This document shows, piece by piece, positions 28,501 through 58,480 of a DNA stretch of 64,000 nucleotides (within the stretch, counting starts at the first letter, position 1; the number at the start of each line of letters is the position of its first letter). The DNA is from Lucifuga dentata. Its lineage: Eukaryota > Chordata > Actinopteri > Ophidiiformes > Bythitidae. Location: positions 54,348 through 118,347 of the forward strand of contig VXCM01000066.1 of assembly GCA_014773175.1 (NCBI GenBank), read 5' to 3'. Made by a program: the position numbers and the translations under genes. Below the pieces are notes generated by a model. That model did not search any database, had not been told where the DNA came from, and saw only the letters and a program-made list of their open reading frames with translations.

Positions 28501-31500
28501 TATATTGTTAACTGATGTCAAAGAACTTATTCATTAATGTAAGAAATGCCAATTTCAAGCTGACGGTCCTTGTTTAAATTTGAACACTTTAATGCCCCTT
28601 ATGAGACACACACATGCACACGCACACACAGGGATTACACACTCGGACTATTGAGAATGGAGAACTACTTGCTTGAATTTATTTCTGCAATCAGCCAAGT
28701 TCTAATTAGTACTGCTCTGTGTAGCCCTGAGGCACATAAGAAAAACAAAACAGCAGGAAGCCATGAATTTCGCTTTGAAACAGTACAAGACAATCAATGC
28801 TTTTGCCTTTTACAATAAATTCCTTCTAAAAAAAAAAAAAAACNAAAAAAAAAAAAAAATCAAATGACTATTGAGATTGAACCTGATTTAGGATTTAGCT
28901 GATTTAAGCTTTCACTTTGTCATCCAATTCAATTCTTCTGGGGGTTCTACATCGAGCAACTCTGAAAGCAGGTGAAAACCAGATTAGTGCCTATTTCATG
29001 GCTGTCAGCTGTGGAAATCTTGGCACGTAGTGTAACTGTTTTTCGGCACTCACAGATCTTACAAGACATTTGGAAATGTCTGGAAAACCATCCAGGCTAC
29101 TTAACTACAGATCAATCACCTGGGCAAAAATCTAACTTTCAGTATAATATACATCAAACTGAAAAACATTTTTTGTAAATGTGTGATAAAGAGGCATATG
29201 TAATAAACATATCAGTTAATTTCCACTATAAATCATTTTTTAAAATATTGTAAAGGTAAGATTTGAAGATGTAAAGTTTTTTATGGTTTTATTATAAATC
29301 TTTCTATTATAAACATTTATGTGTAGACTATTTCATTTTGAATTTAGAGCTTTTTCTTTTGGTTGATCTCTTAGAGTTTGTATTTTTGTCTACAACTAAT
29401 AAAACCATTGTAATTTTATTGCTTTTTTCCAGTAGCCATTATTGTCCATGAAAAGTTAAAATGCATACAAAAAGTCAATCAAAACGTTACTAAAATCTAC
29501 TGAAGGTCAGTGCAGTGACCTATCTACAGGTCACTGCACTGATAGATAGGTTTTAGGTAATTTCTCATTATTTTACAGAATTATAATGACTTCTCAAAAT
29601 ATGTCAGTAATAAGTTATTTACATTAAAATGCTACATACTCTATACTGTAATACTGTAATTTGTCAAAGTTATTTGCAGTACAAGTGCACAATTTTAATT
29701 GTTTTATGGCATGACTGATACTTTTAGATATGTTATGTATACTGTGGCATTCCATGATCCATTTTAAAAATCCTGATTGAAAATCAAATTTCAAAAGAAA
29801 AGCAATGCATTAAACAGTTACGTAGACCAAGGTTAGAAGCGTTAATCAGGGCAAAGGAATATTTCAGGAGAGTTGAGCTGCTGAAGTGAACAGTATTTCA
29901 TTGAATATACTGTATATACTTTGGTCAGACTGGCAGTTTCTCAAACAGTAGCATGGTACCTCCTTAACTAATACTTTCACTAGATTTGGCATGGTGATAG
30001 AGGCTCCTTTAAAAACAGTATAGAGTGTACTTGTAGATGAGATTTCAGTGATAAATAAGTCCCTGGAGAGCCTCTTGTTTCACCCTCCGTTCTTTACCCT
30101 TCTCTCTTAAATAAAGACGAATGCTGAAAACGGCTTGAGTCAGGAGTNCCCTCCGTTCTTTACCCTTCTCTCTTAAATAAAGACGAATGCTGAAAACGGC
30201 TTGAGTCAGGAGTGCAGAGTCAAGGCTCCAGTTTCAGCTCAAATTGCCTGACTGATATGATAATTATGATACCTAAGCACCCACATCCTGTCAATCCACT
30301 CAAACATGGAAAGAGGTGCATGAAAAATAAATGGCAGGTTGCAGAATGCTTGACCGCTCTGACATTGGCATCATACCATGGTGTTCATAACTGCAGAGGG
30401 TCTAAGTAAAGACCATAGAAACAAGCCACCATATCCGTCTCGAGAAAAACAAAAAGAGGAAAAAGAAACCCTCATAAATAGGTAAGTTCATTTGCTGCGG
30501 ATCTGTGGGAACCCATTTTTTTTCCCATCCTGCTCAGACTAAAAGCACACGCTATGCAAAGAAAGGCCACGGAGGATGAATGAGTGGAGGAAGTGCTTGC
30601 TCACTAAGCCTGGTGTGTGGCCAAGAGTGAAGACGGGCCACAAAGCCTCCCTTTGTACTGGAGCTCTCCTCTCTGTGGGGGCTGCGCTAATCTGCTATTA
30701 ATAAAAAAAAAAAAAANGAAAAAAAAAAATCACTGAGCAACAAGAGGGGATGGATGGAGCTGGAGCTCAGAGAACCTGCCTGTGATGTAAGAGGTACGCC
30801 TGCTGGAGATAACAACGGGCCTGGATGGACACACATAAGCCCTCATTGTTACCACTTCTCAACACATTGCAGTGATATTCATCTTCCATGTCAATCCCGT
30901 TTCTATGACAAAAATCTGCATGTGTTTAAGAGTTGTTTCACGAGTCATAAATATGTCAGCGAGCTACTTTACCTTTGTGAAGTTTCCTTCAAAACTGTGG
31001 ATGTCCAGCTGAGGCTTCTGGGCATAGACGTAGGTGCTGATGGATAAGAGGTCCTGAGACAAGCCAAAGTTACAGAAAGGAAGATAAAGTCTTTAGTGCT
31101 GATTAATGCAAAATTCAAATACAAAAAGGCTTTTAATGTTTGCAATCCATAAATATAAGCTCATTCAACTGTTGTTCAACACTGAAAGACAATGTCAGCT
31201 ACAAACCTAAAATAATCTAAATATGAACTTTTGCAAATGCGTTTTTGCCATGGTTTCATTGGTAGCAATGTGAAATAACTGACAAAAACACAAGCAATGG
31301 TTTGTTCTCAAAGTGAAGACGGAATAAAACATAAACGATGCACCATGATCTGTTTCTCACAGTCATCCAAACAAAGGACTGCAGCCTCTGACCTGTCAAG
31401 CACCACCAGCCTTTTTTCCCCAAAGTGGAACAAAATTGATTGTAAATATTAAATTATTCAGGCAGGCAGGCAGGCAGCTTCTGCAGCAGCCAGGCAACCT

Positions 31501-43800: not shown

Positions 43801-46800
43801 GTGCCGACCCTCTGCCTTCAGCCTGACTTCTTCTGCAACCATCAAGTACTTCTGACTGAAATGCCTACAACAACAACACAACCAGGAAATAATCAACAGG
43901 CTAATAGTTGATGTTTGCTGTCTGATCATATTGTTTGTGACGCTTGGAAGAATTACTGATTGTATGAGTGAGGTAAAGGTGGTAAATGCAGGTGCGGTGA
44001 GCTGCAGAATATTTGCCTATAAATATTTTAGCATTTGACTAGATACAGGGTCTAAAAAATAAAACTGAGAAAAAGGATTGAGAATAGTGAAATCCTGTAA
44101 AATGTAAAAACAGAACATAAAATTACTATACAACCTCAGTATAATCATGTAAACAGAGATGTGTAAAGCAGATAATGCATGGAAGATTATGAGCATGTGG
44201 GTGACGTGTGAATACAATGTCTTCCACAGGTTGGGAATATATTTGTGGGAGTCAGCTTCTGCGGTGGGGAGTGCTGACATCCAATACTTGGGAGCTGCGA
44301 AACAGTAAAGCATCCACAAGATAACTGCTGATTAGGAAAGACATTTTCCCAGCCTAAGTGCCTACGCATGAACCCAACATTCTGCAACTTTTCAATCAGT
44401 CTGCAACGACTCAAATGCATTATTAATTTTTTGATGAGGGGGGGGTGAAATCTGGGTGGGTTGNCGACTCAAATGCATTATTAATTTTTTGATGAGGGGG
44501 GGTGAAATCTGGGTGGGTTGAGAAAATAAAACATGTATATGAGAAACACTGGAATATAAGCAGCCTGAAAGGTTGCTCAACTGTATGTGAATGAGCGTCT
44601 CATCCCCATAGAAAACGCTGACGTGAACAAGCCTAAAACTAGTGTCAGTGGGATTATGAGCTTAAGATCGGCCGCTGACAGAGATTCTCGCTGATACGCC
44701 GCTGCAGAGCCATTCATCACGCCAAAGAAAACCGCGCCAAACCCAGCACAGCCTGACATACTCTCTGAGCCAAGAGGTCCTGCAATCTAAGGAGAGAATC
44801 TGAGAGGTAATGTGAAACAAGCTCTTATCTATCCTTGTGCTACTTATATTTGTGAAACACCAAAAAATACCTATCCAGTTACTGTACTTTGTCATTCTGC
44901 AATTATGATTCAGATCTCAAAATTGTACAAGATTTAGTGGTCCACAGTTTGTCCCCCCCCCCAAAAAAAAAAAAAAAAAAAAATTCACATAATACAGCAG
45001 CTCATCAAACAGGCTTGATTTCCCCAAAGGAAACCAAAGATTATTAAAAGTGTCTGATTTTACTCACTGTCCCTTTTCTTGCCTTTTGTGATTAAACTGT
45101 TTCTATATGTAGGAATGGAAGAATATAATTTTCTTTCATTTTTGAAACATAATCACATCATATATTATGCATATTTTATGCATTCATGCTTTAAGACCCT
45201 TGAATAATGCTAAACAGCAAACTGTAACAATTTCAGCTGACAGGACTCAAAATAAACCCCCTATGATGTTGAGTGTGAAGCACTAAGCATCATTTCAAAC
45301 CCTGTGATAATGAAAATCCCCTTCAGTGAGCAGTTACCAAGCAGCACATGTGACTTGTTAACTAAAGAGAACAGAAGCTGGCAGCAGCTCCTGAAATAAA
45401 TACTGAACCTTTCTGAGCTCATCCACAGCCACAAAATTGTCTCTCTCCTGTGAAATTGGCTTCAATCTGTCCCCTAAAGCCTCAGGTCTAGAAACAAAGA
45501 GCACATGACATCAAGAGCGGGTTAATGTCACCCTGTACCCTAATTAAAAACAAAACTTTAATTCTGTGGTCTTGCAAAGATAGCATACAGCATTTGCTTC
45601 AGGACACATCAACAATTAAATATGAGAGGAGAATGTAATTCTCGGAAACAGAGTTGATCATCAACACGTTGGTCATTTAAAAGACTTATAGAACTATAAA
45701 AATATAATATTCAAAAAGTGGTGCTAAATGGTGAAAAAAAAAGTTAATTTTTGACTTGCTGCATTTGGAGGTTCGGAGTTAAACATGCAAATAAAGTGAC
45801 TGGGCTTGAAACTCAACTGGGCTTGCAACATGGAAGCCATCAGCAACCACCTCCAATGAAAAGTTTTCAGCAAAGTCTTCAGCATTGTTTAACTTTGTGT
45901 TTTTTGTTTGCACACTGTTGGAGCTTGCAAACAAGGTGCACAAGCCATAGTTGCTATGCTTGTATTTCCTGTTATGGAAATAACCTCACTNTTCAGCATT
46001 GTTTAACTTTGTGTTTTTTGTTTGCACACTGTTGGAGCTTACAAACAAGGTGCACAAGCCATAGTTGCTATGCTTGTATTTCCTGTTATGGAAATAACCT
46101 CACTGCGAATAAAACAAAAACAGAGAATTTTCCCTTGGGTGATCAAGAAAAGTCTCATACGAGAATAGTGTGAGAAAGGAATGCTCTTGGTAACAAACCC
46201 TAAAGCTTAATATGATATTGGTCAAAAAAAAAAAAAAANAAAAAAAAAAAAAAAAGAGCTGTTATTGTGCATAAGAGCTACATCTGTGGACTCCACCACA
46301 TAAAAATATCTACTTATACTACGAAGCAACAACTGTCTTGGCCTACTACTTGACCTACAAGTACCTGGTCATGCGACCACTTCCCTTCCTGTCCATTTCT
46401 GAATCTGAGCTCATCCTCGTCCAGTCCTATTGGTCCAGTCTGAAATATGAACAATAAACTTATAGATGTTGACTGCAGTGTGTGTAACAGAGGTCCAGGA
46501 TAGATGAATAATGGTTAAAATGCTGGAAAACACACAGAAGCTGTCATGTGGTTTTAAATACAGAAGGGACTGAGCAGTGCAGCGGTCAGCAGATCTCAGT
46601 CAGCAGCCTACGCTAACCTAGCTAAAGTTATATCAAACCAGCAATGACAGATTAAACGTTAGACAAATCTTTAGGTTTATCAACAATGGGGAGAAGGGAG
46701 AGAAAAAAATTCAGCTGTCAAATAATGGCAAAGGAGCTGTCAGTGTAACAAAGCCATGCTAAGCTAGCAGTCAAAGCTGACGCCAACAACCACAAGACAC

Positions 46801-48490: not shown

Positions 48491-48883
48491 TCAGTTGATT
48501 CCAATTTCTTTGCTGTCATCAATCAGCATAGAAAAATGCCTATTAGTTCCCAGGTCCATGCCTGTCTTCCCTAGACTCGTTACTGAACTTCCTGTGATGC
48601 TCGCTCTGTCCATGCCTGCAGTCATGGGATGAAGCTGAGAGATGCCTCTGTTCTGAATCACTGAGATCTCGTTGTTCTTCATGGCCAGGCTGTTGGTGAT
48701 AGCTGTCGCATAGCGGTTCCAAAATCCAGGGTCTACATTCATTGCTCGAGCTGCTAAGTCCTTCTGAAATATCTCTCCGAACTTCATGGCCTCCCCACCC
48801 AGAAGGGCCATGGGGTTTTCTACAGACAGCCGCCGGCCTCTCCTGGCTGGGGCATTGTTCCACATGTGAGTGCCCATATGAAC
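48491..48883 (-). CDS. sall3: sall3 exon 4 (C-terminus, stop)
   Basis: Residues 1137-1266. [18 protein letters not shown] completes the last finger. The tail [29 protein letters not shown] and KEIGIN is SALL3-like. TGA at 48491-48493. Acceptor TTTGCAG|GTTCAT. Confidence 0.95.
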   Translation of the reverse strand, partial: VHMGTHMWNNAPARRGRRLSVENPMALLGGEAMKFGEIFQKDLAARAMNVDPGFWNRYATAITNSLAMKNNEISVIQNRGISQLHPMTAGMDRASITGSSVTSLGKTGMDLGTNRHFSMLIDDSKEIGIN

Positions 48884-51800
48884 CTGCAAATGACAGAAGA
48901 GGAGAAATACCATCACACATGGCATTCGGTGGATGATTTTATTCAAAACATTTCAATGTTACACTGCATCAAAACCAATAATTGGTCCCAGTGATGATAG
49001 AACCCCTGACAGAGTTAGTATGACATGTTATTATACTTGCAAATAGCGACAGCATAACATGACAATACTGGAGTTCTAGCACTCAGTATGGGTTGATTCA
49101 TTAGCTGATGACAATGTGATCATGCTGAAAAAATTAAAGTATTCAGTGTCAAACTGAACGAGAAAGTCAGTTAGCATGGGATACTACATCACTTACCAAC
49201 ATATTTATAGAACATAAACCTCCACCTGACCACAAACATATCAACAAACTGACATATTGATCTGACTCCAAGCAACGCTAAAGATCAAAAGTCTTTTAAC
49301 CACCTTCAAATTGCCTTTAGTGGTGAAAGCTCTGCCACAAATGGAGCAGACAAACGGCTTCTCCCCAGTGTGAGTGCGCTCGTGGATCTGAAGGGCACTG
49401 GCTGACGAGAAGTTCTTCCCACAGGCGTTGCAGTTATGTTGCTTCGGTGTTCGTCGAGGAGGAGCAGGGCCAAGCAGGGAAGTCATTCCTGGGCTGCTGA
49501 CTGACGGATACGCTGGCGGAATGTGCACACTAAACGGTGGGTGCTGCCCTTCGTTTGGGTTGTTTGGATGACTGTGTCCATTCATCTCAGTTTTTATTAT
49601 GCCCGATGAAGTGCTGGTAACCAGGCTGGGAGCACTCTGACCTGCAGAAATGACATGAGTGAAGTTTTCCCCTCAGTTGTAGTCAATATTTAAAAAAAAT
49701 AAAAAATAAAATAACTATAATAAACACACTATAACTATCATTATTCAGACTTATAGAAAAAGCTGGGTGTGAAAAAAAAAACCTTTTTGGTATTGTCCAA
49801 AATGCTTTAATAGTACAGTGTTATCCAATACAAAGAGTAAATGTCTCCTAGAATTTTCTTTTTGAAAGCCAAAAAGAGATTTTTTTTTTTTTTTTTTTTT
49901 TAACTGTGTGGCAGTATGACCTTTAAACTCAACATTTTCACTATTAAAACAGAAAAGGCACTGAAAAAAGTATTGTTAAGAAACCAGCATTAAAGTAATA
50001 GTACTGGCTTTGGTTGTGGGATCAAACAATATCCAACCCTCAACAGATAAATAAGACATCCTAAAACAGAACAAGTGTTTACAACGCATTTTACACTTTT
50101 GGACACAACAAATTTCTATCACTACAATGGTATACAATATAGCAACTTTACCTCGTTCTTTGCTTAGCTGAAATGACACGCTGTAAGGACTCTCTTCTTT
50201 CACACATAATTTGTTGAGATGTATTGCTCTTTGCTCTTGAGCTGCTGCAGCTACTGATGCAGAGGTAGGAGAATGAGATTGCTCTCTCTTCACTGAAGCT
50301 GCCAAAGGTTCTTGGGATTCTGGCCTGTTGCTGATTATAGATGATTTGATAATCATGCCTTCTGAGTTACTTTGTGCAGGAGATGCTGATACATGAGGTG
50401 AACAAGAGGATTCAGACACATTTGGGCTGCTCGCACCAAAATTATCCACCCTTTTTTCTGTTAAAGGGCAGTTAAAAGTGAGTTGGTTCCTGTCGTTAAA
50501 ACCGTTGGTCAGGGATTTAATGCCGAAAGAGTGGCTTAGGCTTACTGTAGAGTCTATCATTCTCATTTGGTTCTCCAGAGCTGCTAAACTTGAAACAATA
50601 GTTGAGGGCTTAGGAGGAGACTTACAAAAAGAGCTCAAAGGTTCTGGCCGGCTTACACTCCCCTCCATATTTTCTGTCTCATCTTCCTCTTCATCATTAT
50701 CATCCTCCATTGAAATATCATCGATGAGATCATTGTCATTACTGCTGAGACTGTCAAAGTACTTTTCAGTGGCAGCAATGTCGCCGTCAATCTCCGGCAG
50801 CCCATCCACAAGGATTGAGTCTGGAATCTGCCCAACCATGTGCATACGGATGTGCTGCTGAAGAACAACTGCATTTGTGAATTTCTTCTGGCAAATGGGA
50901 CACGAGTGCTGCACCCGAACTGGTGGATTTTCTCTGTGAACACCAATGTGAGTCTTCAGGTTGCCTTTGGTGGTGAAAGCCCTGCCACATACCTTGCATT
51001 TAAAGGGCCTCTCGCCAGTATGGATGCGGTAGTGCATCTTCAGCGCACTCTGGCAGCTAAGGACACGGTGACACAGGACACACTTGTTGGGGTCTGTGAT
51101 CTTTTTGTCAATGTTCTCCACCAGCTGTTGAAGCTTTGAGGTTTCAGATGTTTGCATAGGGTCAAGGAGGCCACTGGTTGGGAATTTTATTTCTTCTGAT
51201 TTGAGTGAGAGGGGTGGAGAGTTGGACAAAGGAGATGCTGGGGTGGCAGGTTCAGGTGTTGTGGCCACAGATGGGGTTGTCGTGCTGGTTGCCTCGGTAA
51301 CTGAGTTGGTTCTCAGTCTCCAGATGCAGTTTTGAGGCAGGTGCACCCCCTCTGTTTTCGGTATATTGGAGGATTCTGTCTCTCGGTTGGACTGTGGAGA
51401 CTCTGAAACAGGAGAGACACGAGGCTCACTAGTTCTCTGGTTAGGTGACAAAGATACATATTCACCAGAGGCTGGCAGGTAGGAAGATTTTGCAGATGGT
51501 GTTACACTTACAGGGTCATTTGAGCCTCCTATACTGGTAAGAGTGGAGGAAAGAGGAAGACCCATAGTACTTGGCAGAGGAGTTACAACAGGTTTGCTAT
51601 CCAGCCATGAGGAAACTGGTTTTTCTGGGGGGATTGACATACCATAGGGAATCCCAGAACTTGTTGGCACATTGTCTAGATATTCTGGCACAGGGTAGGG
51701 ATTCATTTGAACGTGAGGATACTTATCTTTATGCCGCTGGAAGTGGACCTTTAAGTTCCCTTTTGTAGAAAAGCGATTGCCACAGATGTTGCATTTGAAG

Positions 51801-54800
51801 GGCCGCTCCCCTGTATGCGAGCGCAGGTGGATCTGCAAAGCGCTATCACTGCCAAACACTTTGGCACAGAATCTGCATTTATGCTTGAAGAAGGGCTCCT
51901 CTGGGCTGGGCTTCGTTTCGAACAAGGACACATTCGGTAGCTTTCCCTTCCTGTGCTTCATCAAGGCCGCAAGAGGGTCAAGTGCATTAGCTGTGGCAGC
52001 AATGCTAGCCAAGGGATTGGGGAAAATGACGCTGCTGGGAGGGCTCTGAGGTAGAAATGGCAGGCTGGAGGATGAGCTGAGGAGACTGCTCTGCCCCAAA
52101 GACAGCAGGCTGGAGGAGCTCAGTGTTTGACTGCTGCTTATGCTGCTTGTGTGAGACGCTGTATAAGCTGGCAACAACGTGGAAATGCTGCTGCTGCTGC
52201 TGCTGCAGCTGGGAAGAGATGTGGCTGTGGTTTCTGAAGAGACTGAGGTACATTTAATATCTCTACATACAGTTTGAGAGGAAAGACTTTGTGGCTTTTC
52301 AAGTACAGATGACATAGAAACAGAAGCTTGTCCGTTCATGGTTGAGGGCATTGTTCCTGACAGTGGAAGGATGGGTGGAGGGATAATGCCTTGAGAGGGG
52401 AAAGGATTAGATGCTAGAGATAGGGCTCTAGAGACTGGGTTTAGTGCTGCTTGCGTTGGCTGTCTGTTCATTATGGCTACCTGGCTGCAAATCTGCTCAA
52501 TAAGCTGCAGCTGGTGGACCTGTTGCTGCTGCAGAGCTAGCAGGTGCTCCAGGATCACTGGGATGGCTGTTGAAGCTGATTTCCCTCCAGTGCAGTTGCT
52601 GTTGATTCCCTGGGAGAACTGGGCAACAGCCACCCTGGTGCTGTGAAGAATCTCAAGTGTCACATTTGTACTTGGCATGGTATAGCTGCCAGCAGCTGCC
52701 ATCTGAGGGGAACCGGACTCAGCCGAGTCTGGAGGCTGAGGACTGGAGGATGCAATGCATTTATCCTGCAGACAATGATCAAGCTCCATGGCTTCATCCC
52801 GCTCCCTCCCTTCCTCTAGATTGTCCAGGCTGTCATTGTCATTCACCAGGGTCTCTCCCAGATCAAAGCCTACGTCTGTGGATTCAGCTGCAGAGGAGTC
52901 ACTGGATGACATGCTAGGAACTGGGGAGGGTCTGATAGGAGATTCCTCAGAAACAGGCATCCCCTCTTTGTCCTTCACTATCAACACCAAGGGATCCTCC
53001 GTGCAGACTGTCTGATGCTCACTCAGTTCAGTCCAAGTGAAGAACTCAGCACAGCATTTGTCACAGATGTGTGTATCCTCACTGCTGTGGTGGCCTTCAA
53101 CTCCATTCTTCTCCTCCCTCTGCAGGCCTTCCATGATGCCTGAGAAGGAGAAAACATCAATAATTATAATAATTATACATAATAATGATAATTAACAGTA
53201 ACAGACATTATTCAAACCCACCAAACTTATTAAACTTTATTTTATACTACCTGAAGGATTTAAAAATTCCAAGTATAATCTTACTGAATTACATACAATG
53301 TATGTAAAATTGCAGAATTTTCCAGTTCATGTAAAAGTGCAGTCATGAAAATAATCCATCATGAGTTTAAATATTTAACCCAATGAATTACATGTTTTCA
53401 GTTAAGCAGAGAGAGCGAGTGGATGGAGAATATGTAACATTGTCGTATGATACTGTTAATTTTTGTACATTTTACAGAAATTCAGTGTAGAAAAAACATT
53501 TTCTGTGAAACCACATGAGAGGAAATTTAAAGAAAATATGTGAGATATTAAAAGTAAGTAATAGACAAAACATTATATTTATACATGGGATTAAATTAGA
53601 TAATGCTTAAAGAATTCCAAAATATGCAAAAGTTCATAAAGAAAGTGAGACAGCAGTTAAGAGTTACCTAATTTGTGTTTAGGAATTATATCACTTTCAA
53701 CATAAAATAGGTCCACAAAATATTGTTTCTCAGTGTAAACTTTAACTCATGCAAAATTATGTTAATATTCCGTCCAAAAATCAATATTCAATAAAGTTAT
53801 CTGACCTCTCTCAAATGTGTGTCCAGACAGTTATTGAAATTCTACACAGAAAATTGACCTCATATAATTCATTACAGTGAGTTATGTGGAGTCACAAATT
53901 GGGGTTGTACATACACTACTGTACATACTACTATAATAACGTATAACATAATACTGTACAATACATTTTCAACTTGGTTAAAGAACTAAATGGGTAAAGT
54001 TTAGAGCATTAGGACATTTCAGATATTATGAAGTAAGATGACAGCCACAGAAATGTACATTTATTTAAGTATCAAATGATTGAGGTTCGTTATTAAAGGG
54101 AAAAGTATAGTCATTTGATAATCCAAGCAGGTTAAAACTCATGTTTGAAAAGAAAATTCTGATGCTGCATCAACTGAAAATAAGGCAAAGAACAACAGGT
54201 AATCAGTCTGTCTTCAATAACCAGAAGGTTATTTCTGTTCTTCAGTACCCCAGATTACCTAAATAACAGTTTGCAAGTTTATACACACTGTAAATAGAGA
54301 GAAATTTCCTAGAATCTTAATCCTCTGTTCCTTTTCTGATCAGACGATTAATTCTGCTTAGATCTATAAAATCTAATACATTAATTACATTTCAAAAGCA
54401 TAAACACCTACATTACTTTTTCTTTCAATTTAACAATGATCTTTTGAAGTATTACCTTCCTTTGATCTTTCTTTCATCTGAAATGTGATTTTCTTTTTCC
54501 TCATGAAGAGATTTTAGAGCGAAAATCATTGTTGCATCTGTTGTTGCTTTGCCCCATTAGGAAACAGACAGCAATAACAGATGGAAAGATTTGGGGAAAT
54601 CAATAATAAATTATTGTTACATACACTCAAGCTTCCAACATAATTTTAAGAATAACATTTTTAAAAGGAGAGAGGAGGATTAGCAGAGATCCAGGTATGC
54701 CTTTAGATTAAATATTTATTTTTTAAAAAAGTATTTTTTAAAAAACTACTTTTTTCCAACATTTTGGTTTCACATACAAATAATTTCCACATACACTTAA

Positions 54801-57488
54801 AAAGAAAACCTACTTTACTATAGTTAATCCTTCTCCTATCTTGAATCACAAAATGTGTGTGTGTGTGTGTGTGTGTGGCCGCCATATGTGCAGGACATAT
54901 TGTATCTGCCATTGTTTTAAGAATCTTGTATTACATAAATTAGAGCAGATCATTTAAATGTATGTATTCATGCAGGAGTAAACGCGCATATACACTTGCA
55001 TTCGTCTGCGCATGGTGTGTGTGTGTGTGTTTGTGTTTCAAGTCGTGGTCAGTACCCTCCAATTATCACCAGGTTGCCGCCTAAAAGACAGACTTGGCAT
55101 TAGTCCCAGTGTGCTTAGGATAAACAGATGCTAAGACTTTAGGTAAATTCATAGTTATATCAATACTGACAGATTCTTATTGCAAACAGCACTTCAAGTT
55201 CTGCGTTTGTGGGGAAACACAAGTCAGTGAACACACCACAGACTTCACAACTGAGATTCAACTTCTGAGCTCAGAAAAGAAGAATGCACACAGAGATGAC
55301 TGAGTACAATGTACTGAAACCTCGTCAGAACTAAAAAAACTCAGAGACGCTGGCTCACCAAGTGGGTGGTCTAAAGATCACCAAGGCGATTCAGCAAACA
55401 CAACGAGCACAAACACTGTTTTAGCTTGGGATTTTGTCTGTGATTTGTACGATTTACTTCGACACAAATCTGAGAAAATATTAGTTTTGGCTTGGAGCTG
55501 TAAATATATTACCAAACATAACACTGATGAAAATTTTATTCAAAATTTTCATCAGTGAAAATTTTGAGGGTGAAAATTTTATTCAAAATTTTCACCCTCA
55601 TAAGTCACTCAATCCATACGTTTAGGAACATAAAACTGATTTATACCCACAAAACTGATTTATATCTACTTCCTGTTGTGTGGTTTGGCTATTAAAGAGA
55701 AAAAAAAAATCAGCAAGCTGAAGCTGAAAACCAAACAGACACTTGTCCCAGTGTCAAACCTCTTTGCCTTTCTGTGACCTCTGGGCTTCAGGTCGACGGT
55801 TCAGATGTACTAATTGTATTACGATCCAGACATGCAGCACTTGGCCCTCGCAGGGTGAAGTTGACAAAGGTTAAGTCAGCAGGCTCAATCAAAGCCCATC
55901 TGAGAGTGGCTGAGCCCCCTGCCTGGCTGCACGGCTGTGGGAGGGCCTGAGAAGGGCCTCTTCCACACTCAGCACCTTTTCATAGCCACAAATAATACTA
56001 AAGCGACATATGACTGTGTAGAAAAACAAAAACTGTGATACTAAAATGTAGAATTAATTATTTAAAAACTGCTTGATCATTTGTAGTCCTTTAACTTTGT
56101 TAAATATACAGACAATCTGGCCATTACAGAAGAGCAAAGTCAACTGTAATATAAACAACCATAAAGGTGTGAAAAGAATCATATTATGTCAGAAGGAATT
56201 ACTTTCAATTAATTGTAATTTAAATTAATAGTGTATTTCTGAGAACATAACAGGTCCAGATATTTTGGAACAAATTTAGAAGGATCAGGCTGAATTTAAA
56301 TAGAAATCAGACAAATTTGAATAAAGGCTACAAACACTTCAGTTTGATCCAAAATCTTAGTTTAGAGGGTAATTTATGGTTAAAATATTCATGCTGATAT
56401 AATATCCTCACCTGTTAGTGCAGATTAAAGGTTCAAATAACATGCAAGCTAATTCCTATGGTATACAAGAAGATAATGAAAATATTTAATTCAATTAACT
56501 GTTAAAATATGAGAAATTCTGTACGCATATGGTGGATCATATAGGCCAGCAATTTTATTAAAATCAGGTTACAAATAATATCTGCCATGGAGAATATGTA
56601 ATCATAATTACCTCTACACTCCTGGAAAAACGTTAAGAAATGCTGAATGAGGGATTCAATTTAATGTTCACTATCTAGGTTAGATTTTTATATTTATGAA
56701 ATTATTTATATTTATGAAATAAATGGAAGTGCCATACTGGTCAAACAGAGCATCATATTGTACAGAGAAGACGCCATGCAAGTCCTGTCAACCAAAATAT
56801 TCTAACAGATGGTTACTTTGAATAAAACATATAATTTAACACATATATGATGATTTTTCTCCTGTGTAAATCTTTAGTTTTTCTCATTAAATTTGAAATG
56901 TTTCAATAGCTGACAGGAAGGCCTCAAGTGAAAACACATAACCCTTAATAAAAACTGTAAACCCTGATATGAGGCTGTTTCCAGGGTTTAATCTGTAGTC
57001 CACAATAGGCCCCAAACCCACTTTTAAAATGTCACAATACACCAAAAACAGAATCTATCTCTAAATTCTTCTTTTCTTGGCTCAATTGTGAACTTTTCTC
57101 AATTTGTTAGGCAGATTTCAGACCTGTGGAGATCTGTGACAACTAAATAAAGAATGTTAAAATGTCAAGTAAAAAAATTTTGGGATCAGGGAGAAATATG
57201 AAAGTAATTCAGCTTCAGAATAGTTTTTAGAAATGAAACCATGATAGATTTACACATCATTGTTACTCCAGTAGTTTTGCATTCAAACTCCTTAACTAAA
57301 GCTTTTCTGACAATCAAGCTTGACTTTTGTTTATGTAGTTGGTCCATTATGCTGACGAGGTGCCTCAAAAACAGTAAAAGTCATAGAAAGATTCCTGCTC
57401 TCATACCATTTTTGCAGAGGACTCCAATCCGTCTGGTCTCTTCGTCTGACTTGAGGTGTTTCGGCTTGGCTTGCTTGCGGCGGGACAT
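48491..57488 (-). CDS. sall3: SALL3, spalt-like zinc-finger transcription factor, complete 4-exon gene
   Basis: The spliced frame is 3801 nt, giving 1266 residues (human SALL3 is 1300). Order: N-terminal NuRD-recruiting motif MSRRKQAKP (1-9); C2HC finger (C53, C56, H69, C73); Q-rich dimerisation stretch (about 230-245); Ser-rich region; first C2H2 pair (449-497); central C2H2 triple (714-794); last C2H2 pair (1094-1142); C-terminus ending KEIGIN. Paralogue-specific matches to SALL3 include [20 protein letters not shown] before finger pair 1, and [18 protein letters not shown] plus [12 protein letters not shown] after the last pair. Neighbouring atp9b agrees. Family role: nuclear repressor in limb, neural and sensory development that binds AT-rich DNA. 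Odd: the C2H2 pair expected between the triple and the last pair is missing. Teleosts may carry two sall3 copies; which one this is cannot be told here. Confidence 0.96.
49304..49641 (-). CDS. sall3: sall3 exon 3 (last C2H2 pair)
   Basis: Residues 1024-1136. It begins [10 protein letters not shown], aligning with SQSTPSLISS of human SALL3. It then encodes [18 protein letters not shown] and most of the final finger pair (C1094 onward), breaking inside TTKGNLK|V. Acceptor CTGCAG|GTCAGA, donor AAG|GTGGTT. Confidence 0.94.
49642..50151. other. sall3 intron 2 (position of the missing finger pair)
   Basis: A 510-bp intron at the point where SALL1 and human SALL3 encode a C2H2 pair. It is AT-rich with a 23-T run near 49880-49902. 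In six frames I see no C-x2-C or HTKERPF-like linker relic. Confidence 0.8.
50152..53139 (-). CDS. sall3: sall3 exon 2 (main exon)
   Basis: A 2988-nt exon encoding residues 28-1023. It holds the C2HC finger, the Q-rich stretch, the first C2H2 pair and the central triple. Acceptor CTCAG|GCATCA. It ends at KERG with donor CGAG|GTAAAG. The open frame runs on into the intron for some 55 codons, but these show no finger or conserved motif. Ser tracts include a CTG/CAG-type repeat near 52188-52206. Confidence 0.95.
55522..55599. repeat. two adjacent perfect hairpins sharing one core
   Basis: Hairpin 1 (55522-55557) has 16-bp arms beginning CACTGATG; hairpin 2 (55566-55599) has 15-bp arms beginning GAGGGTG. 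Both have the loop ATTC and the same inner arm GAAAATTTT. A third small palindrome AAAATTTT (55558-55565) joins them. In sall3 intron 1. Confidence 0.9.
55780..55985. promoter_or_regulatory. candidate regulatory block in sall3 intron 1
   Basis: A GC-richer island in an AT-rich intron, with TTGACAAAGG (TCF/LEF-like) and TCAATCAAAG. Position inside sall3 makes an intronic enhancer plausible. Confidence 0.3.
57407..57488 (-). CDS. sall3: sall3 exon 1 (start codon, NuRD motif)
   Basis: Residues 1-27. [17 protein letters not shown] is the conserved SALL repressor N-terminus; position 10 is Lys where human SALL1/3/4 have Gln. Donor AATG|GTATGA, phase 1. Confidence 0.95.
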
Positions 57489-58480
57489 GTTGGTGTTTGT
57501 GATCGAGCTGCTCCGTCCTTTTTCCGATTCATCTACAACCAGCAAATGGGACTCTTCAGATGGAGCGGGGTCGCTGAAATAAGCGAACGGTGGCTGCTGC
57601 TGCCAGTCGTGTGCAGATTGCGCATGTCAGTGTAATTATGATGGAGGAAGGATAATGCTTTTACGACTCTTGCTGCCCTTCGCCGGGTGATTGGCTGCGG
57701 TCCAGCCAGCTCACGTTAGATATGGAAATGAGGGATGGGGTTTAATAATTATAAGTCCACTTCCTGTCCGGTTTGCGGCTGCTTTTACGCACAGCTCCGA
57801 CCTGCTCCAACACGGTACGCGCGATCGCACTTCTCTGACAGCCTCATGAGTTTTTTTTTTTGTTTTTTTTTTTTTGGAGCAATCCTTAGTTTGTCTTTGA
57901 GGCCAAAATGTTGCAGCTCTGGTCTGTATGAGCGTCAGATTAACTCCTTCAAGAGCTTGAGTGGAGAGAGTTGCTCCCGGTTGAGCTGATTTCTGTTGGA
58001 TGTGGATGGATGTCCCTGCTGAATCTCTGAGCTACACCAGCAGGCTGTTGTTATCTTTCCTCAGTATGATCTAAGCTATGTTGCATATTCTAAAAGTGTA
58101 AATTTAAGTCCCGGAGAGTCTTGCGTAAAAACAAAGGAAAGGATCGCAGATAAGACCGGCGAATTCGTGCGTGAAGTCAAACTTTGTGCGTAAAAAGCTT
58201 TCTCGGGTCGCTCACAGGTCCGATCTCAAACCGGTGGAGGTNGTCAAACTTTGTGCGTAAAAAGCTTTCTCGGGTCGCTCACAGGTCCGATCTCAAACCG
58301 GTGGAGGTCGGAAATGTGTCTGAAGTTGTCCGAGGCACCGGCTCTCTCCTTGTTGCCTCCGCCTCCGGTCCATCATTAGATGCCCCACAGCCCGCTGCGA
58401 TAGGCTACTGCCAAGATACCACCGGAGCTGCTGGAGCCTTCGCTTCATTTGTTACGACCTCCCACAATTTGGCGGCATAA
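57489..58480. promoter_or_regulatory. sall3 promoter/5' UTR region, GC- and CpG-richer
   Basis: Relative to the rest of the window this stretch is GC-richer and has many CpGs (for example around 57590-57830 and 58140-58400), as expected at a developmental gene promoter. A TATA-like TTATAATTATT lies on the minus strand at about 57745-57755. Part of it (58176-58308) is artificially duplicated around an N. Confidence 0.5.
58176..58308. other. assembly join: 66-bp sequence repeated around an N
   Basis: 58176-58241 equals 58243-58308, N at 58242, within the sall3 promoter side. The open frame that crosses it is an artefact. Confidence 0.9.

What the first reader, a model, noticed from the sequence alone, without database searches (positions are those of the whole stretch)
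49642..50160. sall3 has lost a zinc-finger pair, and a splice donor sits at the exact break point
Seen: exon 2 reads ...QLSKERG and breaks at CGAG|GTAAAG; exon 3 resumes at GQSAPSLV. Known: SALL1 and human SALL3 continue RERGK into a C2H2 pair (CxxC, HTKERPF linker) before reaching SQSTPSL. In human the RERGK codons can themselves form an AG|GTAAG-type donor, so an in-exon splice removing this pair looks possible there. Inference: here the finger-coding piece has been replaced by a 510-bp intron with no relic, turning an optional splice into the only form. The protein keeps a pair, a triple and a last pair, like SALL4, although the rest is SALL3.
Basis: partly seen in the sequence, partly recalled or inferred. 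Interest (0 to 1): 0.75.

Follow-up and report, generated by a model that had tools for sequence, protein, structure and literature searches.

The report
Zinc-finger pair turned into an intron
In the gene sall3 of this cave fish, the place where sharks and land vertebrates encode a pair of zinc fingers is an ordinary intron; the other ray-finned fish proteins compared lack the pair too, while lizards and birds seem to splice that stretch out only some of the time.

Summary
The window is Lucifuga dentata; the gene is sall3b, minus strand, with a 510-bp phase-1 GT..AG intron (50151-49642) where the third zinc-finger pair (ZFC3, 72 residues) should be, and no relic of it. But this is not peculiar to this fish: none of the 120 best-matching proteins (111 named, all ray-finned, from bichir and sturgeon to teleosts) shows ZFC3. 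A query built to find a ray-finned SALL3 with ZFC3 listed 120 proteins, all with ZFC3; the named ones are tetrapods, coelacanth, lungfish, shark and skate. Tetrapods have annotated forms with and without exactly these 72 residues, and unspliced reading frames put ZFC3 inside exon 2: an in-exon intron ('exitron'). Short tetrapod forms and gar, bichir and sturgeon proteins share the junction RERG|PSQSTPSL. Best reading: an ancestral coding segment became optionally spliced and was fixed as an intron on the ray-finned stem. Exitrons and intronization are known kinds, but a clade-wide vertebrate case with a living intermediate looks unusual in the passages I read. Untested: RNA-seq, tetrapod DNA at the splice sites, this fish's other sall genes (genome search did not complete).

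The parts
57407..57488 (-). sall3b coding exon 1 ([13 protein letters not shown]..., NuRD-binding-type N terminus)
   Evidence: tblastn of P0001; joined exons equal P0001, GT donor follows
50152..53139 (-). exon 2, 2988 bases: C2HC finger, ZFC1 pair, ZFC2 triple; ends KERG
51731..51877 (-). ZFC1 finger pair
50840..51082 (-). ZFC2 triple
49642..50151 (-). intron 2, 510 bp, phase 1, at the place of ZFC3; GC 0.29; read-through in the exon-2 frame gives G-K then a stop within 60 codons
   Evidence: no ZFC3 similarity
50146..50154 (-). splice donor GAG|GTAAAG, overlapping codons that would read R-G-K
   Evidence: long relatives read R-G-K in 114 of the 117 rows matched
49304..49641 (-). exon 3, 338 bases: first finger of ZFC4 and start of the second
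48884..49303 (-). intron 3, 420 bp
48491..48883 (-). exon 4: end of ZFC4 and SALL3-type C terminus, with stop

Best explanation
The ZFC3 segment was coding sequence in the SALL3 of the jawed-vertebrate ancestor. It came to be spliced out optionally as an in-exon intron (exitron), with the donor in the codons for R-G-K (G|GTAAR) and the acceptor in the codons for L-G. On the ray-finned stem the spliced form became the only one, and the segment, freed from coding, decayed into an ordinary intron, 510 bp and AT-rich in Lucifuga. The protein keeps the C2HC finger, ZFC1, the ZFC2 triple and ZFC4. Shown: the gene structure here, absence of ZFC3 in the ray-finned proteins compared, its presence in shark, skate, coelacanth, lungfish and tetrapods, two annotated tetrapod forms, and the common junction. 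Inferred: descent of the intron's DNA from the ZFC3 segment, the exact tetrapod splice sites, the order of events, and that ZFC4 carries DNA binding without ZFC3.
For: Same junction RERG|PSQSTPSLV in short tetrapod forms and in bichir, gar and sturgeon. Short and long tetrapod forms differ by exactly 72 residues, with both forms from one species and contig in Podarcis muralis and Pterocles gutturalis. 16 of 16 unnamed long reading frames run through ZFC3 to the end of exon 2 and into read-through, so ZFC3 is not a separate exon there; 10 of the 16 also begin in what looks like read-through of the intron before. None of 120 best matches shows ZFC3; 120 of 120 rows listed in the aimed search have it and none is a named ray-finned fish. 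Presence/absence needs one change on a 36-row tree, branch support 100/100. Donor codons G-K in 117 of 117 long rows matched, of 120. Human SALL3 ZFC3 shows no missense depletion, VdVp 1.29 (PMC9838217, passage).
Against: No sequence relic in the intron, so descent is not shown. Most proteins are gene models, not cDNA. The optional form was seen only in tetrapods; listed shark, skate, coelacanth and lungfish rows are all long, and shark/skate read C-G-K, a poorer donor context. No tetrapod DNA or RNA was read. ZFC3 is strongly conserved where present (47 of 50 core residues shark to coelacanth), so an easy loss is not obvious.
Confidence: 0.8

Rival explanations
1. ZFC3 was deleted on the ray-finned stem and an unrelated intron was inserted at the scar; the optional splice of tetrapods is a separate, later invention.
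For: No ZFC3 relic in the intron; the optional form was not seen in shark, coelacanth or lungfish rows.
Against: Ray-finned and short tetrapod proteins join at the same residues, and the window's intron sits in the glycine codon where the G-K codons of long forms can form a donor. Two independent events would have to meet there.
Confidence: 0.12
2. ZFC3 was once a separate cassette exon; ray-finned fish lost the exon and kept the merged intron, while other lineages fused it with exon 2.
For: Would explain in one step why no relic remains.
Against: In 16 of 16 unnamed long reading frames ZFC3 is continuous with exon 2. No lineage with a separate exon was seen; shark DNA was not read.
Confidence: 0.05
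3. Assembly or annotation artefact: the finger-coding part exists in the fish but is missing from the sequence.
For: The assembly has 18 single Ns in the window, four inside near-exact tandem duplications.
Against: None is inside the gene, and the 119 other best matches, including Genypterus of the same order (order recalled), also lack the pair.
Confidence: 0.02

Closest known systems
Exitrons, Marquez et al. 2015 (PMC4484396, abstract and passages)
   Same: An in-exon stretch that codes protein when kept and, being a multiple of 3 (216 bases deduced), leaves an internally deleted protein when spliced; the paper reports exitrons that affect C2H2 fingers of KRAB-ZNF proteins.
   Different: In ray-finned fish the stretch is a fixed, non-coding intron. 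In the paper's plant test no distant orthologue had an intron in place of an exitron. SALL does not occur in its main text.
Intronization in vertebrates (PMC12124190, abstract and passages)
   Same: Exonic sequence of some lineages corresponds to an intron in another, with flanking exons aligned.
   Different: Its three cases are in human genes (CYP21A2, RPGR, HELZ2). Here the change is on the ray-finned stem and an optional stage survives in tetrapods. SALL does not occur in its main text.
SALL4 (PMC8699250 figure legend; PMC9838217 passages)
   Same: Has clusters corresponding to ZFC1, ZFC2 and ZFC4 and lacks ZFC3; four exons (PMC9951407 passage).
   Different: The window gene is SALL3 by best matches and C terminus. 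Whether the SALL4 intron lies at the same codon was not tested.
Loss of 'ZF4' in chick and murine Sall3 (PMC5892016, passages)
   Same: The same finger pair is reported missing from Sall3.
   Different: In the passages read it is given as loss, without mention of an alternative form, an intron or ray-finned fish. Rodent and bird long forms with the pair are listed.

Membership tests
SALL3 orthologue | Best matches are SALL3 | tested here: met
   Most named top rows are called sal-like protein 3 or 3b; some UniRef rows of the same set are labelled 'Sal-like protein 1', an automatic label also put on the gar row
SALL3 orthologue | Placed by tree among SALL3 and apart from SALL1 and SALL4 | not tested
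   The tree holds SALL3 proteins only
SALL3 orthologue | Neighbour ATP9B | tested here: inconclusive
   Two exons of a phospholipid-translocating P-type ATPase on the same strand at 10047-9952 and 8790-8719; ATP9B lies distal to SALL3 in mammals (PMC2180198 passages), but ATP9A neighbours SALL4 (recalled) and A against B was not resolved
SALL3 orthologue | ZFC4 of SALL type | tested here: met
   Residues 1081-1146 match solved chain 7y3l, Sal-like protein 3, E 2.2e-36
Exitron (state in tetrapods) | Both forms annotated, differing by an internal coding stretch | tested here: met
   64 long and 46 short non-ray-finned rows among the 111 new rows
Exitron (state in tetrapods) | Stretch lies inside one exon | tested here: met
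   16 of 16 unnamed long reading frames; their organisms are not named
Exitron (state in tetrapods) | GT..AG at its ends, spliced in RNA | not testable with these tools
   Only proteins held; G-K and L-G codons allow it
Intronization (state in ray-finned fish) | Intron exactly where relatives have coding sequence | tested here: met
   Window intron read at DNA level; in 7 of 9 unnamed contig proteins exon 2 runs into read-through there; other species by protein only
Intronization (state in ray-finned fish) | Intron DNA descends from the coding segment | tested here: inconclusive
   No similarity left

The most novel reading that the evidence does not exclude
The optional splice at R-G-K is older than the split of SALL3 and SALL4, and the same zinc-finger pair was turned into an intron at least twice: in SALL4 of vertebrates and in SALL3 of ray-finned fish. 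Tetrapod SALL3 keeps the intermediate, and in placental mammals, where human SALL3 ZFC3 shows no missense depletion (PMC9838217), it is drifting the same way.
Probability: 0.3. Interest if true: 0.68.

Novelty: new variant of a known kind. Interest (0 to 1): 0.52.

Why it matters
PMC12124190 (passages) calls intronization apparently rare, reports three human cases and met no study across vertebrate subgroups. If the reading holds, SALL3 shows the stages side by side: a conserved coding segment in sharks, an optional one in tetrapods, a fixed intron in ray-finned fish. It also makes ray-finned fish natural models of a SALL3 without ZFC3, and could explain why published descriptions differ on whether SALL3 has this pair.

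Tried and rejected
Loss peculiar to this species: rejected, since the 119 other best matches lack the pair too. Assembly error: rejected (and the orthologues). Hidden finger exon in the window: the ZFC3 query found the three retained clusters and otherwise only weak matches. Confusion with sall1 or sall4: judged unlikely from best matches, but no SALL1 or SALL4 was put in the tree. Pfam on 10 other reading frames of the window: nothing. Rfam on the window at gathering scores: nothing. NCBIfam on the whole protein: nothing. The junction pattern sorted 98 of 121 ray-finned rows; 23 vary or are cut there and were judged by finger counts alone. Literature: 10 of 10 searches used; none of the listings names this event. 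The library holds open-licence papers only, and papers were seen as listings, abstracts or passages, none in whole.

Full report
What is there. The finding lies on the minus strand. Exon 2 (53139-50152) ends ...AAAGAACGAG; intron 2 (50151-49642) runs from GTAAAGTTGC to TTTCTGCAG; exon 3 (49641-49304) begins GTCAGAGTGC; intron 3 is 49303-48884 and exon 4 48883-48491 (stop). Exon 1 codes from 57488 to 57407. The joined exons give 1266 residues identical to P0001, hypothetical protein LDENG_00159030 of Lucifuga dentata. The intron is 510 bp and splits a glycine codon after its first base (phase 1).

What is missing. The coelacanth protein has 72 further residues at this point, a C2H2 pair with a TKERP linker. 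With that query the window shows only the retained clusters (63-64 bits, then weak matches) and the intron nothing above 13.1 bits. The intron has stops in all three forward frames and GC 0.29, against 0.489 in exon 2. Reading on from exon 2 gives R-G-K, then a stop within 60 codons. So two codons at the donor are all that recalls the coding form, and the donor itself may require them.

How widespread. One search searched residues 430-1238 and listed the best 120 of 3387 matches. Of these 120, 105 have both landmarks and no finger between triple and last pair, 8 are cut before the last pair and show none after the triple, and 7 missed the first landmark; the finger lists of these 7 and of one of the 8 show no extra pair. 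The ZFC3 linker HTKERP is in none of the 120. 111 rows are named and are ray-finned by their names: bichir, sturgeons, gar, bowfin, eel, tarpon, osteoglossomorphs, herrings, characins, salmonids, percomorphs; 9 are unnamed. Arapaima, Paramormyrops and Scleropages each show two proteins, in two separate supported groups of the tree, and both lack the pair. The 3267 matches beyond the list were not seen. One model, Myripristis P0029, has extra residues starting GKV that look like intron read-through. 31 of 121 ray-finned rows read R-A instead of R-G at the junction, often RAAG, which suggests a second acceptor a few bases upstream.

A search aimed the other way. Bichir flanks were joined to the coelacanth ZFC3 and residues 945-1180 searched. 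I expected a ray-finned SALL3 with ZFC3 to outrank tetrapods because its flanks match better; this was not calibrated. Of 1359 matches the best 120 were listed: 56 new rows, all with ZFC3 (54, 2), and the 64 long forms already known. The named ones are birds, reptiles, amphibians, mammals, Latimeria, Protopterus, Carcharodon and Rhinoraja; 16 are unnamed. No named ray-finned fish is among them; 1239 matches were not seen.

The optional splice. Among the 111 new rows, 64 have ZFC3 and 47 do not; one of the 47 is the paddlefish Polyodon, leaving 46 short tetrapod rows. Short forms are also listed for a frog, an opossum, turtles, a snake, lizards and many birds. Short and long differ by 72 residues, and the short form joins RERG to PSQ. 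Bichir, gar and sturgeon read RERG|PSQSTPSLVTST at the same place. The pattern used matched 117 of the 120 long forms: all begin the segment with G-K, 114 after R and 3 (shark and skate) after C. GGTAAR would give a donor after the first base of glycine, the position and phase of the window's intron. This is a deduction from protein.

An exon part, not a cassette. All 16 unnamed long rows run through ZFC3 to GNLKV at the end of exon 2 and into read-through; 10 also begin in what looks like read-through of the intron before exon 2, so they are unspliced. Of the 9 unnamed fish rows, 7 end in read-through at or near the end of exon 2, and 2 (P0038, P0053; contigs of 3058 and 4829 bases) are spliced through to the usual C terminus, so they look like cDNA of the ZFC3-less form.

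Polarity. The ZFC3 core of Carcharodon is 47 of 50 identical to that of Latimeria; 11 tetrapod-type rows scored 44-50 (two of them unnamed); 3 of the 18 rows tried did not match the pattern and were not scored. On a tree of 36 SALL3 proteins of my choice, ZFC3 removed, presence/absence needs one change on a 100/100 branch. The root drawn is the midpoint; with sharks outside, the ray-finned rows form one group. That this is a loss and not a gain rests on SALL1 having ZFC3 (PMC9838217 passage) and on ZF4 in many invertebrate Sall proteins (PMC5892016 passages).

Mechanism. A coding segment that could be skipped by splicing came to be skipped always and decayed. The last pair, ZFC4, is kept; it matches the solved SALL3 chain 7y3l, and PMC9838217 (passages) says SALL1, SALL3 and SALL4 share the ZFC4 residues that bind AT-rich DNA. 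The same paper finds no missense depletion in human SALL3 ZFC3 (VdVp 1.29), while SALL1 ZFC3 is among its most depleted clusters. What ZFC3 does was not found in the passages read.

What is known. Exitrons: PMC4484396. Vertebrate intronization: PMC12124190; a listing also shows PMC3565874 on human retrogenes. PMC5892016 says chick and murine Sall3 lack this pair; the legend in PMC8699250 gives SALL3 all pairs and SALL4 none at this place. Two forms in tetrapods would reconcile these. None of the listings of my ten searches names this event.

Limits. No RNA-seq, no tetrapod or shark DNA, no own-genome search, mostly gene models. The optional form was not seen in shark, skate, coelacanth or lungfish, so its age is open.

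Noticed in passing
30083-30213, 44407-44520, 45878-46104, 58176-58308: Near-exact two-copy tandem duplications of 58-114 bases, each with a single N inside (30148, 44464, 45991, 58242); probably gap-closing artefacts of the assembly.
   Followed up: partly
10047-9952 and 8790-8719, minus strand: Two exons of a phospholipid-translocating P-type ATPase, probably atp9b, downstream of sall3b on the same strand.
   Followed up: partly
ray-finned proteins such as P0009, P0010, P0014: 31 of 121 ray-finned rows read R-A, often RAAG, at the junction; it looks like a second acceptor upstream of intron 2. The window lacks the AG needed six bases upstream.
   Followed up: partly
P0253, P0258, P0269 (shark, skate): Shark and skate read E-C-G-K instead of E-R-G-K at the donor codons, a poorer donor context, so the optional splice may be weak or absent there.
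   Followed up: no
P0188 against long bird forms: The short bird form heads a cluster of 633 member sequences while most long bird forms are clusters of one; the short form may be the more often annotated one.
   Followed up: no
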